Below are positions 208-13,573 of a stretch of 20,228 bases of DNA, in pieces. Every line of letters begins with the position of its first letter. The first letter of the stretch is position 1. The notes beneath the pieces are model-generated. The model saw nothing but the letters and a program-made list of their open reading frames with translations. It was not told the origin of the DNA and made no database searches. Both the position numbers and the translations under genes were made by a program. The stretch covers positions 1 through 20,228 of IMG/VR virus record IMGVR_UViG_3300048921_000075. One strand, 5' to 3'. The DNA is from a virus.

Positions 208-408
208 ATGACCAAAGAAAAGGTAATCGACTTGCTGCTATTGCGGGTGGAGAAGGCGGAAACCAATAAGGCCGCTGCGGAGGCATTGGGTGTATCGCCG
301 CAGTACCTGGGAGATGTTCTGCGTGGGCGCACGGAACCGGCAGGAAAGATGCTAGCTGCTCTCGGTATTGAGCGCGTTGTAACGTATCGCAAGTTGGAGG
401 CGAAATGA
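208..408 (+). CDS. Small HTH (Cro/CI-like) DNA-binding protein
   Basis: This 66-residue protein has a helix-turn-helix core at about residues 18-45 (NKAAAEALGVSPQYLGDVLRG), followed by an ALGIERVVTYRK tail. That is the usual shape of short phage Cro/C1-type regulators. The start at 208 was chosen because GGAGG lies at 199-203; an in-frame ATG at 148 would add an unlikely hydrophobic leader and has no ribosome site. Its stop overlaps the next start (ATGA). It is the first gene of the rightward operon and diverges from the gene at 1-90, so it may autoregulate this control region. That role is inferred from position. Confidence 0.75.
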   Translation: MTKEKVIDLLLLRVEKAETNKAAAEALGVSPQYLGDVLRGRTEPAGKMLAALGIERVVTYRKLEAK

Positions 409-803
409 GTGAGGCATGGTACATCTCTCGCACCGAGGAGTGGTTCAGCGAGGGGCCGTTAGACTCTCGCGAAGAAGCAATCAGGGAAGGTGTAGCTCAG
501 TTCGACGGGGAACCCTTCTGGATTGGTAAGCGTGAGGATTATGCACCGTTCCAGCGTGATTGGCTGGATGAGGCGCTAGAACTAGAAACCAATGATGTGT
601 ATGACGAGTGCGGTTCGGATGCTTCCGATCAGTGGCCTTCTCGTGTATCTCATGATGGCGAGTATCACCAAGCCAACGAAGAGATTCGTGCGATCCTGCT
701 GCGCATATACGGCAAACCATCCGTGTTCAAGGTTGAGGATGCAGAGCAGATCGTTCCCGAGGACAATGCAGCGCTGGCGCAGGCGAGGGGAGAAGAACTA
801 TGA
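405..803 (+). CDS. Acidic phage protein of unknown function
   Basis: A 132-residue strongly acidic protein. Its N-terminus, WYISRTEEWFSEGPLDSREEA, resembles short phage proteins that begin with a WYI-x-R strand and then a REEAI-x-EG helix; no function is known to me for them. No membrane segment, cysteine pairs or catalytic motif can be seen. The start codon overlaps the HTH gene by four bases, and the stop overlaps the next start by four. It is therefore probably translated by coupling within the operon. Acidic early proteins of this size are sometimes DNA mimics or inhibitors of host enzymes, but nothing here shows that. Confidence 0.7.
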   Translation: MSEAWYISRTEEWFSEGPLDSREEAIREGVAQFDGEPFWIGKREDYAPFQRDWLDEALELETNDVYDECGSDASDQWPSRVSHDGEYHQANEEIRAILLRIYGKPSVFKVEDAEQIVPEDNAALAQARGEEL

Positions 804-1003
804 ACCGCGACGAGAACCAGGAAGCAGTCACCGCAAGCGAGTACACCCCGCAGCGGCATTACGCACCAATGCACGATGCCCCACCGAGTTTCCTTGAGAT
901 GTACGCGGGAATGCTGCTGTGCATTGTAGTGGCTCTGGTGCTTGGATTCTGCCTTGGGTTTGGATTCTGCCTTGGGTACGATTACGCGGGAGGTGTGCGA
1001 TGA
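800..1003 (+). CDS. Single-pass membrane microprotein with Gly/Phe/Cys repeat
   Basis: A 67-residue protein with a polar N-terminal half and one hydrophobic segment at about residues 35-60. The second half of that segment reads LGFCLGFGFCLGYDYAGG. The repeated GFCLG unit is encoded by a perfect 18-base tandem duplication. The start overlaps the previous stop (ATGA), and the stop overlaps the following start. Topology is probably N-out or N-in single-pass with a very short tail. Its glycine spacing could support helix packing and oligomers, as in small holin-like or superinfection proteins, but no lysis genes are adjacent and the function is unknown. Confidence 0.65.
   Translation: MNRDENQEAVTASEYTPQRHYAPMHDAPPSFLEMYAGMLLCIVVALVLGFCLGFGFCLGYDYAGGVR
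942..977 (+). repeat. Perfect 18-bp tandem duplication inside a coding gene
   Basis: Two exact copies of TTGGATTCTGCCTTGGGT sit head to tail at 942-959 and 960-977. The unit is six codons, so the reading frame is kept and the membrane segment is lengthened by six residues. It may vary by replication slippage. Confidence 0.95.
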
Positions 1004-1245
1004 CTCTAGCCGAATGCATAAAGAAAGCGCGTGCTGGTGATGTGCTTGGCGAATGCTTTCAGCGGATGTGCTGGAGCACGAATGAGTTCTTGTGCATTGA
1101 GGAGTGCTCTGACACATGGCATGAGCGACAGGGAGATAGCGCGCAGGATTCGGTGTTTGTAAAAGATTACCGTCCTGCCATAGAAGACGTGATGGCTACA
1201 GATTGGAATTACTGCGGGCCGTTGCTTGGCGGAGGTGGAGAATGA
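1000..1245 (+). CDS. Probable DUF2829 / Tad2-like (Thoeris anti-defence) small protein
   Basis: An 81-residue protein starting at the ATG that overlaps the previous stop (ATGA); GGAGG lies at 989-993. The pattern matches the DUF2829 family: an N-terminal helix (LAECIKKARAGD), an R-x-x-W strand (QRMCWSTNEFLCI), and a C-terminal P-x-x-EDVMATDW box equivalent to the family's SQEDLLAEDW ending. Known family members such as Tad2 form oligomers that sequester the cyclic-ADP-ribose-type signal of Thoeris defence. The match is made by eye and is divergent: the central loop is cysteine-rich and the C-terminus ends in GGGGE. Its place among small early genes suits a counter-defence role, which is inferred. 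Confidence 0.5.
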   Translation: MTLAECIKKARAGDVLGECFQRMCWSTNEFLCIEECSDTWHERQGDSAQDSVFVKDYRPAIEDVMATDWNYCGPLLGGGGE

Positions 1246-1340
1246 CCAACCCGCCGCGCATCCTCACCGCTACCGACCTGCTGATACTGGCACTGATGGG
1301 ATTGTCGATCTACACGTTTTATTCAACCCGAGGAGTCTGA
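1242..1340 (+). CDS. 32-residue membrane microprotein
   Basis: A short frame starting at ATG 1242, which overlaps the previous stop as ATGA and is preceded by GGAGGTGGAG. It encodes MTNPPRILTATDLLILALMG and then a LSIYTFYSTRGV tail. Residues 12-27 form one hydrophobic helix flanked by an arginine on each side. The next gene starts three bases after its stop, and that gene's ribosome site lies inside its last codons. The overlap with its neighbour and the ribosome site argue for a real gene. No function can be assigned. Confidence 0.5.
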   Translation: MTNPPRILTATDLLILALMGLSIYTFYSTRGV

Positions 1341-1342
1341 CG

Positions 1343-1594
1343 ATGGCTAAGAGCAACATTTTCCAGTGCGACATCTGCGGCAAAGAGGTGCGCTACACAT
1401 CATGGCATAACTCGCCTACTTCGGTGTCGTTGTCGTTCGTGATCCCGCAGAGTTCCGCACAGAAGAAGTTCGAGCGTGAGAAGATTTGCAAGAGCTGTGC
1501 CGCTACCTTGATCGCAGGGTTCGACCGAGCTTACTACAGCATTGAACGCGCAGGATCGGATCCGGTGACTGCAGCTGCTATGGAGGCGAAGTGA
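1343..1594 (+). CDS. Small zinc-ribbon protein
   Basis: An 83-residue protein with two CxxC knuckles: C9/C12 in FQCDICGKEV and C49/C52 in KICKSCAA. Together they look like a treble-clef or zinc-ribbon fold with a long loop between the knuckles. The start at 1343 follows GAGGAG at 1331-1336; an upstream in-frame ATG at 1226 would run through two other genes. Such proteins may bind nucleic acid or protein, and the target is not visible. The stop shares a base with the next start (TGATG). Confidence 0.65.
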   Translation: MAKSNIFQCDICGKEVRYTSWHNSPTSVSLSFVIPQSSAQKKFEREKICKSCAATLIAGFDRAYYSIERAGSDPVTAAAMEAK

Positions 1595-1860: not shown

Positions 1861-2138
1861 CCCTCTGGTTCCTCGCAATACCCACCCTATGCCTGATCCT
1901 CTATCGGATCCACTGTGAGGCGGTATCGTGTCGCGCATACCGCAGATACGATCAACTCAAACTCGCGGTAGATAACTACCAAGCCGCGTGGAATGAGTGC
2001 TGGGACGATCTATGGAGCCGCGCATCAGTTCAGGAACGCGGTTGGCTGACCGAACCACAACGCGCCCAACTGGATACAATCAACGAACGCATTGGGGCCA
2101 TCCATGTGCAGATGGCCGAGTGCGCGGAGGAATTCTAA
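1851..2138 (+). CDS. Membrane-anchored helical protein, unknown
   Basis: A 95-residue protein. Residues 2-19 (VVALWFLAIPTLCLILYR) form an N-terminal membrane anchor, followed by a charged, probably helical or coiled domain to the C-terminus. The start at 1851 was chosen over 1803 because it places the hydrophobic segment at the N-terminus and follows a GGA-rich site. The shape resembles an inner-membrane spanin or other anchored accessory protein, but no endolysin or holin is beside it. It ends TAATG with the methyltransferase start. Confidence 0.55.
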   Translation: MVVALWFLAIPTLCLILYRIHCEAVSCRAYRRYDQLKLAVDNYQAAWNECWDDLWSRASVQERGWLTEPQRAQLDTINERIGAIHVQMAECAEEF

Positions 2139-2812
2139 TGAAAGTACTCGATTTATTTTGCTGTGCTGGAGGGGCAGCATTTGGACTCAAGCAGGCATGG
2201 CCAGAAGCAGAAATTACAGGCGTGGATATAGACCCGCAACCCCGCTATCCGTTCAAATTCGTGCGCGCAGATGCGGTGGAATTCGATGTTTCTGGGTTTG
2301 ACTTCATTTGGGCTAGTCCTCCATGTCAAGGATATAGTGCTTTGAAAACTATGACGAACTCACGCGTCCATCCTAAGTTAATTGAAGAGGTTCGATACAA
2401 ACTGCAGATGTCTGGGTGCGATTGGGTGATCGAGAATGTACCAGGTGCTCCTATGCAAAATTCAGTGATGCTTTGTGGTAGCCATTTTGAGCTGGAATCG
2501 GAAGGGTTTCAATTGAGGCGCCACCGTCTATTTGAGAGTAATTTCCCTATAGCATTTCCGGGAGAATGCAAGCACTGGGAACGGACAGTGGGGGTATATG
2601 GGGCAAAAGTTAGAGATATAGCCCAGGAGAAGCGCCATTATTCTCAACCCAAAGAAGGCAGGGGTAAACCTGTGGGAGTTGTTCTAAAGCAATCCATAGG
2701 ACGAGAATCCATGGGGATCGATTGGATGAATATGCACGAGCTATCAGAGGCTATACCACCCGCATACTCCAGATACATCGGAGAGCAGTGGCTAGTTAAA
2801 GAGGGTAGGTAG
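2138..2812 (+). CDS. Compact DNA cytosine-C5 methyltransferase
   Basis: A 224-residue protein that would transfer a methyl group from SAM to carbon 5 of cytosine in DNA. Visible motifs are motif I DLFCCAGGAAFG (5-16), motif IV SPPCQGYS with the catalytic cysteine C63, motif VI IENV (98-101), motif VIII QLRRHR (125-130), and a C-terminal IPPAYSRYIGEQ (206-217) equal to motifs IX/X. It is much shorter than bacterial C5 enzymes (usually above 300 residues), so the target-recognition region is very small; this is common for phage versions. No restriction enzyme is nearby, so it is an orphan enzyme, probably protecting phage DNA or changing its expression. The start TAATG overlaps the previous gene, after GGAGG. 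Confidence 0.9.
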   Translation: MKVLDLFCCAGGAAFGLKQAWPEAEITGVDIDPQPRYPFKFVRADAVEFDVSGFDFIWASPPCQGYSALKTMTNSRVHPKLIEEVRYKLQMSGCDWVIENVPGAPMQNSVMLCGSHFELESEGFQLRRHRLFESNFPIAFPGECKHWERTVGVYGAKVRDIAQEKRHYSQPKEGRGKPVGVVLKQSIGRESMGIDWMNMHELSEAIPPAYSRYIGEQWLVKEGR

Positions 2813-3002: not shown

Positions 3003-3175
3003 TCCTGGCACCAGAACCATACCACCCAATCCGCGAACGCCTCAAGCGCCTACAGAAGCGTGCAGACCGCTACATCTTCGCCGCACTCAACGGCTATAGC
3101 GCAGACAGGCAGGAGCGCGAGGACAAAGAGGATTGGGTTAACAGGAAGATTGAGGAGGCAGTGAATGGCAGATGA
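2990..3175 (+). CDS. Hypothetical basic helical protein, 61 residues
   Basis: It starts at ATG 2990 with GGAGG at 2981-2985. The sequence MRRVILAPEPYHPIRERLKR is followed by a charged, mostly helical C-terminus (DRQEREDKEDWVNRKIEEAV). Arginine, lysine and glutamate dominate, with no membrane segment or cysteines. The overlaps with both neighbours (13 and 11 bases) place it in the operon. The function is unknown. Confidence 0.55.
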   Translation: MRRVILAPEPYHPIRERLKRLQKRADRYIFAALNGYSADRQEREDKEDWVNRKIEEAVNGR

Positions 3176-3650
3176 ACGTATTTTAGATCCGTGCTGCGGT
3201 TCCCGCATGTTCTGGTTCGACCGAAAGAACCCCGATGCAATATTCGGTGACATCCGCAGCATTTCGACAGAGTTATGCGACGGGCGCCAGTTGCGCGTGC
3301 AGCCCGATGTGATGATGGATTTCACCTGCATCCCGTTCGCAGATGAATCGTTTTCGCTTGTAGTTTTTGATCCTCCACACCTCGAAAACCTAGGCGAACG
3401 CAGCTGGATGGCGGCTAAATATGGCGTTCTTGGAGGGGACTGGAAACAGATGCTACGAAATGGTTTCGAGGAGTGTTTTCGCGTCCTTAAAAAGGATGGC
3501 GTGCTGATCTTCAAGTGGAACGAGTCTCGCATCCGTCTAAAGGAGGTTATTGCGCTATCTCCGCATCCACCACTATTCGGGCATCCAACTTCCGCTAACG
3601 GTAAGACGCACTGGATGACATTCATGAAACCTCGTAAAGGCGTGGCTTAA
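3165..3650 (+). CDS. SAM-dependent methyltransferase (probably DNA-modifying)
   Basis: A 161-residue class I methyltransferase-like protein. Its N-terminus carries DPCCGSRMFWFDR (8-20), in place of the usual DPFxGSG SAM-binding motif, followed by an acidic GDIR (28-31). The catalytic-type box is FDPPHL (68-73), a DPPY variant used by amino-methylating N6-adenine or N4-cytosine enzymes. LKKDGVLIFKW (108-118) matches the following strand. It lacks an obvious target-recognition domain. With the C5 enzyme at 2138 it makes a pair of orphan methyltransferases in one operon. The substrate is most likely DNA, but RNA or a nucleotide cannot be excluded. The start follows GGAGG at 3153-3157. Confidence 0.8.
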   Translation: MADERILDPCCGSRMFWFDRKNPDAIFGDIRSISTELCDGRQLRVQPDVMMDFTCIPFADESFSLVVFDPPHLENLGERSWMAAKYGVLGGDWKQMLRNGFEECFRVLKKDGVLIFKWNESRIRLKEVIALSPHPPLFGHPTSANGKTHWMTFMKPRKGVA

Positions 3651-3944: not shown

Positions 3945-4217
3945 ATGGAAGAACTTTATAAAGACAACCCCAATGCAGAATCGGCAAGCCGCGATTGGAT
4001 GGACAAAGACATGTTCATGGTCTTGTCGGCATGGAACGGCGATAAGGCGCATTGCGTCTATCTCAACGACCATCGAATAGCAGGCGGTAAACCGTGGGGA
4101 GGAGGGGCTACTACCAAGAGATGGCGCTTGACTGTAAGGGACTTGGCGCGAGCTATTCCCGAGCTACGGCCACTCCTTGGAGTCAATTGCTACGGTAAGG
4201 ATAGCGATCAACTATAA
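3945..4217 (+). CDS. Hypothetical phage protein, 90 residues
   Basis: It starts at 3945 after a very good AAGGAGGAG ribosome site. The protein has a central strand-rich part (DMFMVLSAWNGDKAHCVYLN), a glycine-rich GGKPWGGG loop, and a C-terminal helix (VRDLARAIPELRPLL). No family is recognised. It is separated from the preceding gene by 43 bases, rather than overlapping as earlier genes do, and is followed by a GC-rich hairpin. Confidence 0.6.
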   Translation: MEELYKDNPNAESASRDWMDKDMFMVLSAWNGDKAHCVYLNDHRIAGGKPWGGGATTKRWRLTVRDLARAIPELRPLLGVNCYGKDSDQL

Positions 4218-5087: not shown

Positions 5088-5103
5088 ATTATGCTTATGT
5101 ATC

Positions 5104-5154
5104 CAACATCTTGTGTTGTCACATCCAATTGACCACAAGATGTTGTGGTTTTTA
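5104..5154 (+). terminator. Strong hairpin terminator after the zinc-finger gene
   Basis: A perfect 12-bp inverted repeat, CAACATCTTGTG (5104-5115) with CACAAGATGTTG (5134-5145), continues inward as GTCA/TGAC (5118-5121 with 5130-5133), leaving an 8-base loop. TGGTTTTTA follows. It starts 17 bases after the stop of the zinc-finger gene. The long AT-containing dyad could also serve as a protein-binding site. Confidence 0.75.
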
Positions 5155-5304
5155 CCAAAATTGTCTTTAAACCTCGTCTGCTACCCTCATGCCTGTATCA
5201 AAGTTTGGGGCGTGCGAGAACGTACTCCGTGATGCTCAGCCCTGACAGTTGTTGCTGTTGCTTTTCGCTTTTGTGCTGCACGAATACGTCTGGAAAGGAA
5301 CGTC
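5155..5304 (+). other. 150-base stretch without a convincing gene
   Basis: It lies between the terminator and the 31-residue gene. It is pyrimidine-rich on the + strand (repeated TTGTTGCTGTTGC and CTTTTCGCTTTTG). Short frames here lack ribosome sites. It should contain the promoter of the following two genes, but no -35/-10 pair stands out. Confidence 0.5.
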
Positions 5305-5400
5305 ATGAAAAGGCTATTTTGTTTATTTAGTTGGCATTCGTGGGCGATCGATATGCAGTCTCAGCGCACGGTCTGCGTCGATTGCGGTAAAGAAAAGTAG
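5305..5400 (+). CDS. 31-residue zinc-knuckle microprotein
   Basis: It starts at ATG 5305 after GGAAAGGA. It encodes MKRLFCLFSWHSWAIDMQSQ and then RTVCVDCGKEK. C6, H11, C24 and C27 form a plausible zinc site, with the ending CVDCGKEK like the second half of a zinc ribbon. Short proteins of the form CLFxWHxW...CxxCGK occur in phages and bacteria with no known role. It has only three bases between its stop and the alternative start of the next gene, so the two are probably co-transcribed. Confidence 0.55.
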   Translation: MKRLFCLFSWHSWAIDMQSQRTVCVDCGKEK

Positions 5401-12940: not shown

Positions 12941-12991
12941 CGTTGCGAGGTGTTCAGACCTCAAGCGAACGCAAATGATCGGAGGAGATCA
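12941..12991 (+). promoter_or_regulatory. Structured leader enclosing the nuclease ribosome site
   Basis: First stem: CGTTGCGAGGT (12941-12951) with ACCTC, GC and AACG (12958-12971, small bulges). Second stem: TGATC (12976-12980) with GATCA (12987-12991), holding the GGAGGA ribosome site in a 6-base loop. The GTG start follows at 12995. Such folding would limit translation. Confidence 0.45.
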
Positions 12992-12994
12992 ACC

Positions 12995-13573
12995 GTGCCA
13001 CTACAGTCTATTTCATATCGGGGATATGTCTATCTAATTAAAGCCATTGACCATCCGTGGTGGAAGATTGGAATGTCTGTACGGCTAGAAAAGCGCATTC
13101 AGAATCTAGGCGTTCTAATGCCTTTTGCAACCAAGGTTGTAGCTGTGTGGAGAACTAATGATCCCGCAGACGCTGAAAGGATGCTACATGAGCAGTATGC
13201 AGACCTCAGGCTAGGCGGAGAGTGGTTCGATTTCGCGGAAAGCAAAACCGCCAAAACCGCATTAAGAGTCCTTCTAGAAGAACCAATTTTAGATTTTGGG
13301 CGAGTTTTGATGGAGCGATGCGAGCAAGAGTTCGGAAACTCCATTAGGAGTAGACAAAGAATAGTCCTTACAGCTAAAAAGCAGTTTTATCGGGACATGT
13401 GGAGTAGGGAAATAGGAGTCCTAAAAGAACTATATAGAGACGACGAAGATGGGCTTCGGAAGGCTAAGAAGGAACTGCGCGCTAAGATAACTGGACGCCG
13501 ATTGCCTCATAGGGCGTGGAAACCCGTTGACATCGAGCCCTTTCATGCATCACACTTGCTGCATGTAGCTTAG
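12995..13573 (+). CDS. GIY-YIG family nuclease (T5orf172/MUG113 type)
   Basis: A 192-residue protein starting at GTG 12995, nine bases after GGAGGA. The N-terminal domain has GYVYLIKA (10-17, the GIY strand), WWKIGMSVRLEKRI (22-35, the KIG strand and arginine), E61 in AERMLHEQY with H65, and GEWFDF (75-80). These are hallmarks of the T5orf172/MUG113 branch of GIY-YIG nucleases. The C-terminal half is basic and helical, suitable for DNA binding. Its DNA is AT-richer than the flanking head genes, and it has its own promoter and terminator-bounded slot. A free-standing homing endonuclease in a late operon is the likeliest reading. Residues 53-80 and the catalytic arginine look intact. Confidence 0.8.
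   Translation: MPLQSISYRGYVYLIKAIDHPWWKIGMSVRLEKRIQNLGVLMPFATKVVAVWRTNDPADAERMLHEQYADLRLGGEWFDFAESKTAKTALRVLLEEPILDFGRVLMERCEQEFGNSIRSRQRIVLTAKKQFYRDMWSREIGVLKELYRDDEDGLRKAKKELRAKITGRRLPHRAWKPVDIEPFHASHLLHVA

What the first reader, a model, noticed from the sequence alone, without database searches (positions are those of the whole stretch)
1000..1245. Divergent Tad2/DUF2829-like protein in the early operon: candidate anti-Thoeris factor
The 81-residue product keeps the family layout by eye: N-terminal helix with a glycine, R-x-x-W strand, and a terminal EDVMATDW box. It lies in a block of tiny, tightly coupled early genes, the usual place for counter-defence proteins. The middle is cysteine-rich and unlike the common family, so ligand choice could differ.
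Basis: partly seen in the sequence, partly recalled or inferred. Interest (0 to 1): 0.62.

Follow-up and report, generated by a model that had tools for sequence, protein, structure and literature searches.

The report
Divergent Tad2-like phage early protein
A small early gene of an uncultured phage encodes a very divergent cousin of Tad2, a protein phages use to mop up bacterial alarm molecules, but its presumed binding site has changed so much that what it binds, and whether it fights Thoeris defence, is unknown.

Summary
The gene is real: 81 codons at 1000-1245, ATGA-coupled on both sides, inside an early operon behind a Cro-like HTH gene. PF11195 (Tad2-like) is the only Pfam hit (17.3 bits, E 0.0072), but below the curated cut-off of 25. 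A profile of short divergent relatives scores the protein above all 60,000 shuffles and above 8,396 ORFs from other phage loci. Two IMG/VR proteins that pass the Pfam cut-off share its closing box (Y-x-P-[AS]-I-[ED]-D-V-M-A-x-D-W). With relatives supplied, AlphaFold2 gives pLDDT 82; on structural re-alignment the ten best rows are all Tad2 entries (Z 7.0-8.0; best unrelated 4.3). Caveat: those relatives partly impose the fold, and the single-sequence model was uninformative. The protein keeps five framework residues (R22, W25, D63, D68, W69) but loses both presumed pocket loops (GWNG becomes CWST; W-x-P-S-Q-T-D becomes Y-R-P-A-I-E-D). It sits with an untested branch that includes the S. aureus phage phi12 gene. 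Best reading: a Tad2-fold protein with an altered pocket, plausibly a nucleotide-signal sponge with a different ligand; anti-Thoeris activity specifically is about 15% likely.

The parts
1000..1245 (+). CDS of the 81-aa divergent Tad2-like protein
   Evidence: coding bias; PF11195 17.3 bits; PF11195 in own record 15.8 bits, E 3.6e-4
988..993 (+). Shine-Dalgarno GGGAGG, 6 nt before the ATG
   Evidence: sequence
1006..1035 (+). predicted N-terminal helix alpha1, residues 3-12
   Evidence: model
1063..1074 (+). R22-M-C-W25: keeps the invariant R and W of the family; G24, N26 and G27 of the GWNG loop (SPO1 numbering) are C, S and T
   Evidence: alignments
1168..1206 (+). Y57-R-P-A-I-E-D-V-M-A-T-D-W69 closing box, equivalent of W-x-P-S-Q-T-D-x-L-A-x-D-W
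   Evidence: 11 of 13 identical to L295; alignments
208..408 (+). Cro-like HTH gene at the head of the operon
   Evidence: PF01381 28.7 bits (cut-off 23)
405..803 (+). coupled upstream gene, phrog_1672 (unknown function)
   Evidence: E 8.4e-9
800..1003 (+). coupled upstream gene, probable one-helix membrane protein
   Evidence: sequence
1242..1340 (+). coupled downstream 32-aa probable membrane peptide
   Evidence: sequence
1343..1594 (+). downstream gene with CxxC...CxxC, zinc-finger-like
   Evidence: weak sub-threshold hits only

Best explanation
The ORF encodes a small single-domain protein of the Tad2-like fold (helix, beta hairpin, two more strands, short helix, last strand). It belongs to a short branch without the GWNG loop, together with the phage phi12 gene and two uncultured-phage proteins. 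The most likely mechanism, by inference, is that it assembles like Tad2 into an oligomer and binds a small, probably nucleotide-derived molecule early in infection, so that a host alarm signal cannot reach its effector. Because the residues of both loops that line the known pocket are replaced, the ligand is probably not gcADPR bound in the SPO1 way. Shown here: the gene, its coupling, the statistical link to the family, and the conserved framework residues. Predicted: the fold. Inferred only: oligomer, ligand binding and counter-defence.
For: PF11195 is the only Pfam hit, 17.3 bits, E 0.0072; the same profile in the whole record picks only this place, E 3.6e-4. The profile of short divergent relatives gives 14.6 bits, 0 of 60,000 shuffles as high, and ranks this ORF first against 8,396 ORFs from other phage loci and the window's other ORFs (13.6 bits against 9.3 for the next). 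Intermediates L295 (35.3 bits), L381 (33.6 bits) and the phi12-type S. aureus phage protein L303 (43.2 bits) pass the Pfam cut-off of 25 and align over the whole domain with R22, W25, D63, D68 and W69 invariant. AlphaFold2 with 23 relatives: pLDDT 82, pTM 0.73. VIA-align: the ten best rows are all Tad2 entries (8kbi, 8wje, 8wjd, 8kbk, 8sme, 9eib, 8smf, 8kbj, 8v3e, 8smg), Z 7.0-8.0, rmsd 2.1-2.5 A over 63-66 residues, next row 4.3. Foldseek against viral models: best hits are DUF2829/Tad2-like proteins, probability 1.00. Phi12 also carries its copy in the early region directly behind the Cro-like gene. Known Tad2 proteins bind different ligands (gcADPR, cyclic dinucleotides, His-ADPR; PMC12043709, PMC13299392), so ligand change within the fold has precedent.
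Against: Score below Pfam's curated cut-off (17.3 against 25). The single-sequence model was uninformative and all-helical (pLDDT 53), so the good model depends on an alignment that already assumes the family. Foldseek against the PDB gave no match better than E 1.6. L295 and L381 were found with patterns based on this protein's own closing box, so their likeness there is partly selected. Their genes sit beside portal and head genes, which fits counter-defence less well. No homologue of P0001 itself was found in phages, IMG/VR or GTDB genomes, so there is no evolutionary test of its pocket.
Confidence: 0.4

Rival explanations
1. Canonical anti-Thoeris sponge: the protein binds gcADPR or His-ADPR as SPO1 Tad2 or ModTad2 do.
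For: Same predicted fold, early operon, and functional spread in the family (PMC12043709, PMC13299392).
Against: Both presumed pocket loops differ: in SPO1 numbering G24, N26, G27 and K28 are C, S, T and N, and W73, S76, Q77 and T78 are Y, A, I and E. All ten Tad2 sequences of alignment A2 keep G24, W25, N26, G27, W73 and S76.
Confidence: 0.15
2. Tad2 fold reused for another job: a regulator or accessory factor in the early region (phi12-like), or a head-assembly accessory (L295/L381-like), that does not sequester an immune signal.
For: PHROGs labels the branch 'transcriptional regulator' (phrog_643). L295 and L381 lie next to portal genes. Xenorhabdus carries Tad2-like domains fused to DUF7823 in many copies. 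The pocket loops are replaced.
Against: I found no basis for the regulator label beyond its being written in records. No DNA-binding motif is apparent, and the protein is acidic (15 D+E against 7 K+R).
Confidence: 0.3
3. Another inhibitor activity in the same fold, such as the anti-CRISPR activity reported for the DUF2829 protein AcrIIA7, or binding of a host protein.
For: AcrIIA7 carries the DUF2829 domain (PMC6739104) and PDB entry 8kbi (AcrIIA7) is the top structural row.
Against: 8kbk and 8kbj show the same protein holding cADPR and cGG, so sponge activity is at least part of its function; nothing specific in P0001 points to Cas9.
Confidence: 0.07
4. Chance resemblance: an unrelated small protein that happens to have R-x-x-W and an EDVMATDW box.
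For: Below the Pfam cut-off; single-sequence model unlike Tad2; no direct homologues.
Against: 0-4 shuffles per tens of thousands score as high; best of 8,396 foreign ORFs plus the window's own with the short-branch profile; intermediates pass the cut-off.
Confidence: 0.08

Closest known systems
SPO1 Tad2 (gp34.65; PDB 8sme, 8smf, 8smg, 8wje) and other solved Tad2 proteins (ModTad2 9eib, 8v3e; HgmTad2/AcrIIA7 8kbi-8kbk; SptTad2 8wjd)
   Same: Predicted order helix-strand-strand-strand-strand-helix-strand, about 2.3 A over 64 residues; framework residues R22, W25, D79, D84 and W85 of SPO1 kept.
   Different: 14-24% identity in the structural rows; GWNG and W-x-P-S-Q-T loops lost; six cysteines; about four extra residues between helix and first strand in the alignment; shorter middle without the long insertion.
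Staphylococcus phage phi12 gene phi12p07 and its many copies (phrog_643, DUF2829)
   Same: 81 aa, no GWNG loop (K-D-W-K), closing box W-Q-P-S-A-D-D-L-M-A-N-D-W, early gene right after the Cro-like gene; same clade in a short tree (support 0.98).
   Different: 26% identity; passes the Pfam cut-off (43.2 bits for its near-identical copy L303); two genes closer to cro.
IMG/VR proteins L295:2830-3057 and L381:3866-4171
   Same: Closest closing box: Y-Q-P-S-I-E-D-V-M-A-T-D-W and Y-S-P-S-I-D-D-V-M-A-K-D-W; no GWNG.
   Different: Lie beside portal genes in head cassettes; pass the Pfam cut-off (35.3 and 33.6 bits); no cysteine cluster.
Xenorhabdus Tad2-like domains fused to DUF7823
   Same: Non-GWNG Tad2-like domain with E-D-L-M-A-C-D-W box.
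   Different: Fused to a second domain and repeated in one bacterial genome; not a phage early gene.

Membership tests
PF11195 (Tad2-like / DUF2829) | whole-protein score at or above the curated cut-off (25 bits) | tested here: not met
   17.3 bits, E 0.0072
PF11195 (Tad2-like / DUF2829) | framework residues R..W after the helix and D....DW at the end | tested here: met
   R22, W25, D63, D68, W69 invariant across 24 aligned sequences; R..W in all 171 collected members (collection partly chosen by these motifs)
PF11195 (Tad2-like / DUF2829) | better match than expected by chance | tested here: met
   4/30,000, 1/60,000 and 0/60,000 shuffles; first among 8,396 foreign ORFs with the short-branch profile, but second with the broad one
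PF11195 (Tad2-like / DUF2829) | Tad2 fold | tested here: met
   ten best VIA-align rows are Tad2, Z 7.0-8.0, next 4.3. Conditional: the alignment given to AlphaFold2 contained Tad2-like proteins, and the single-sequence model was uninformative
canonical Tad2 sponge | GWNG beta1-beta2 loop | tested here: not met
   C-W-S-T instead
canonical Tad2 sponge | W-x-[PA]-S-Q-[TS]-D beta4-alpha3 loop | tested here: not met
   Y-R-P-A-I-E-D instead
canonical Tad2 sponge | homotetramer | not testable with these tools
   only single chains could be predicted
canonical Tad2 sponge | binds gcADPR, His-ADPR or cyclic dinucleotides | not testable with these tools
   needs purified protein
anti-Thoeris factor | protects phage against Thoeris in cells | not testable with these tools
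   needs a plaque assay; host unknown
phrog_643 ('transcriptional regulator') | profile match | tested here: inconclusive
   only PHROG listed, but E 0.16 and only residues 46-70

The most novel reading that the evidence does not exclude
The branch without the GWNG loop (P0001, phi12-type, L295, L381) is a functionally distinct set of Tad2-fold sponges whose rebuilt pocket, cysteine-rich in P0001, binds a defence signal not known to be targeted by any Tad2.
Probability: 0.17. Interest if true: 0.65.

Novelty: new variant of a known kind. Interest (0 to 1): 0.36.

Why it matters
Known Tad2 proteins already differ in what they trap (gcADPR, cyclic dinucleotides, His-ADPR). A coherent branch in which the presumed pocket loops are all replaced, present in common S. 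aureus temperate phages as well as here, is a ready set for finding new signals or for showing that the fold has jobs outside immunity. It also shows that curated cut-offs and automatic labels (such as 'transcriptional regulator') hide such members.

Tried and rejected
Direct homologues of the protein: none in phages at E 1; at E 10 only 8 weak hits. The best of these (Bacteroides phage BK687P6) lies in a different frame inside a large annotated gene and was rejected as spurious. None in IMG/VR or GTDB genomes by exact 8-mers. Weak hits in 299 genomes drawn from the phylum of a Burkholderia genome did not show the R..W plus DW pattern. Kin of the phage through terminase and portal: none close. 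Through the DNA methyltransferase: 80 loci, none with a homologue of P0001 and none giving a weak Tad2 match. The canonical Tad2 profile alone is weak for this protein (8.2 bits, 5 of 20,000 shuffles as high). PADLOC and NCBIfam gave no hit. Foldseek against PDB listed no Tad2 chain in its top 50; they appeared only on re-alignment. SPO1 gp5.3 scored 11.9 bits with the broad profile but lacks the DW box and is taken as chance. Residue-level pocket papers (Nature 2024) are not in the library, so the pocket loops are taken from a review (PMC12043709).

Full report
WHAT IS THERE. The record is a 20,228-base virus contig; terminase and portal have no close relative in the collections searched. The ORF at 1000-1245 encodes MTLAECIKKARAGDVLGECFQRMCWSTNEFLCIEECSDTWHERQGDSAQDSVFVKDYRPAIEDVMATDWNYCGPLLGGGGE. 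It has a good Shine-Dalgarno, is ATGA-coupled to the genes before and after it, and shows coding bias in its own frame only. It is the fourth gene of a rightward block that starts with a Cro-like HTH gene (208-408, PF01381 above cut-off), followed by a phrog_1672 gene and a probable membrane protein. 'Early' is inferred from this layout; no expression data exist.

IS IT TAD2-LIKE BY SEQUENCE? PF11195 is the only Pfam match: 17.3 bits, E 0.0072, residues 17-70, below the curated cut-off of 25. Searched with that one family, the whole contig gives this place alone, 15.8 bits, E 3.6e-4. I collected 171 family members and built profiles. Canonical members alone give a weak score (8.2-10.2 bits; 4 of 30,000 shuffles as high in the larger set). 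Adding or using only short divergent members raises it: 10.8 bits with 1 of 60,000 shuffles, and 14.6 bits with 0 of 60,000, the latter aligning residues 20-70. With that short profile the ORF ranks first against 8,396 ORFs of other phage loci and the window's other ORFs, 13.6 bits against 9.3; with the broad profile it is second to a chance-looking SPO1 ORF. Some circularity remains: the path to phi12 led through a protein (L295) found with this ORF's own motif, and the Xenorhabdus set came through phrog_643, its only PHROG hit (E 0.16).

INTERMEDIATES. A degenerate search with the box [IL]ED[VIL][LM]ATD found one relative, L295:2830-3057; the search alignment was made of this protein plus artificial rows that vary everything except the box, purely to make the tool scan for the box. 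L295 matches 11 of 13 residues of the box and scores 35.3 bits against PF11195. Its relatives are the phi12-type S. aureus phage proteins (weak, E 0.7; 43.2 bits against PF11195 for the copy L303) and L381 (42% to L295, 33.6 bits). In the alignment, R22, W25, D63, D68 and W69 are invariant in all 24 sequences. A small tree puts P0001 with L295 and L381 (support 0.72) and these with phi12 (0.98); with about 70 columns and selected sequences this is only indicative.

FOLD. Alone, the protein gives an uninformative model (pLDDT 53). With the 23 relatives it gives pLDDT 82 and pTM 0.73, with helix 3-12, strands 18-22, 29-33, 40-44 and 52-56, helix 61-65 and strand 69-74. Foldseek finds no significant PDB chain, but re-aligned by VIA-align the ten best rows are all Tad2 entries, Z 7.0-8.0, the best other row 4.3. 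In the viral model library the first hits are DUF2829/Tad2-like proteins with probability 1.00. The alignment given to the predictor contained Tad2-like proteins, so this shows that the sequence is compatible with the fold rather than proving it independently.

POCKET. According to a review (PMC12043709) the gcADPR pockets of Tad2 are built from the beta1-beta2 loop, the beta3-beta4 loop, strand beta4, the beta4-alpha3 loop and helix alpha3 of two protomers. In the ten diverse members of A2, F7, R22, G24, W25, N26, G27, W73, S76, D79, L81, D84 and W85 do not vary. P0001 keeps R22, W25, D79, D84 and W85 but has C for G24, S for N26, T for G27, Y for W73 and A for S76. The phi12, L295, L381, Xenorhabdus and Synechococcus phage S-CBWM1 proteins also lack GWNG. 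So the framework is kept and the presumed ligand loops are replaced throughout this branch. Which residues touch ligand was not checked on coordinates.

CONTEXT. In phi12 the gene follows the Cro-like gene directly, as here with two genes between. In L295 and L381 it lies beside portal and head genes. Xenorhabdus has several copies fused to DUF7823. Context is therefore mixed: early placement fits counter-defence here, but the fold may have other jobs.

VERDICT. A divergent Tad2-fold early protein is likely (about 0.85). A signal-sequestering counter-defence role is the best single mechanism (about 0.4, all inferred; separate from the canonical anti-Thoeris reading at about 0.15). By Pfam's own cut-off it is not a formal member, and it fails both pocket-loop features of canonical Tad2; I therefore call it a variant that may work like a Tad2, not a Tad2.

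Noticed in passing
L295:2830-3060 and L381:3866-4174: Short Tad2-like genes directly downstream of portal genes in two uncultured phages, inside the head cassette, with a 90-91 aa gene between portal and Tad2-like gene in both.
   Followed up: partly
L256, L259-L264 (Xenorhabdus thuongxuanensis genome G003) and L384:2111-2836: Tad2-like domain fused to DUF7823, several paralogues in one bacterial genome, some in tandem; possibly a use of the fold outside phage counter-defence.
   Followed up: partly
L296:2498-2743 (phage phi12) and many S. aureus phages: Short non-GWNG Tad2-like early gene right after the Cro-like gene, recorded as 'transcriptional regulator' in several records although its copy passes PF11195.
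   Followed up: partly
window 5103-5155: Inverted repeat CAACATCTTGTG...CACAAGATGTTG followed by a T run: terminator-like, loop about 18 nt, upstream of the gene at 5305 and the terminase genes.
   Followed up: no
window 12950-13573: GIY-YIG-type gene (MUG113/T5orf172) between the scaffold-like and capsid genes; looks like a homing endonuclease insertion.
   Followed up: no
window 2138-2812 and 3165-3650: Two DNA methyltransferase genes (phrog_363, phrog_954) in the early region, possible anti-restriction; the second is about 57-66% identical to many phage copies.
   Followed up: no
window 3945-4217: Second-best ORF of the window with the short Tad2-like profile (9.3 bits); matches only a D-W-x-x-x-D-M-F stretch without DW box, probably chance.
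   Followed up: partly
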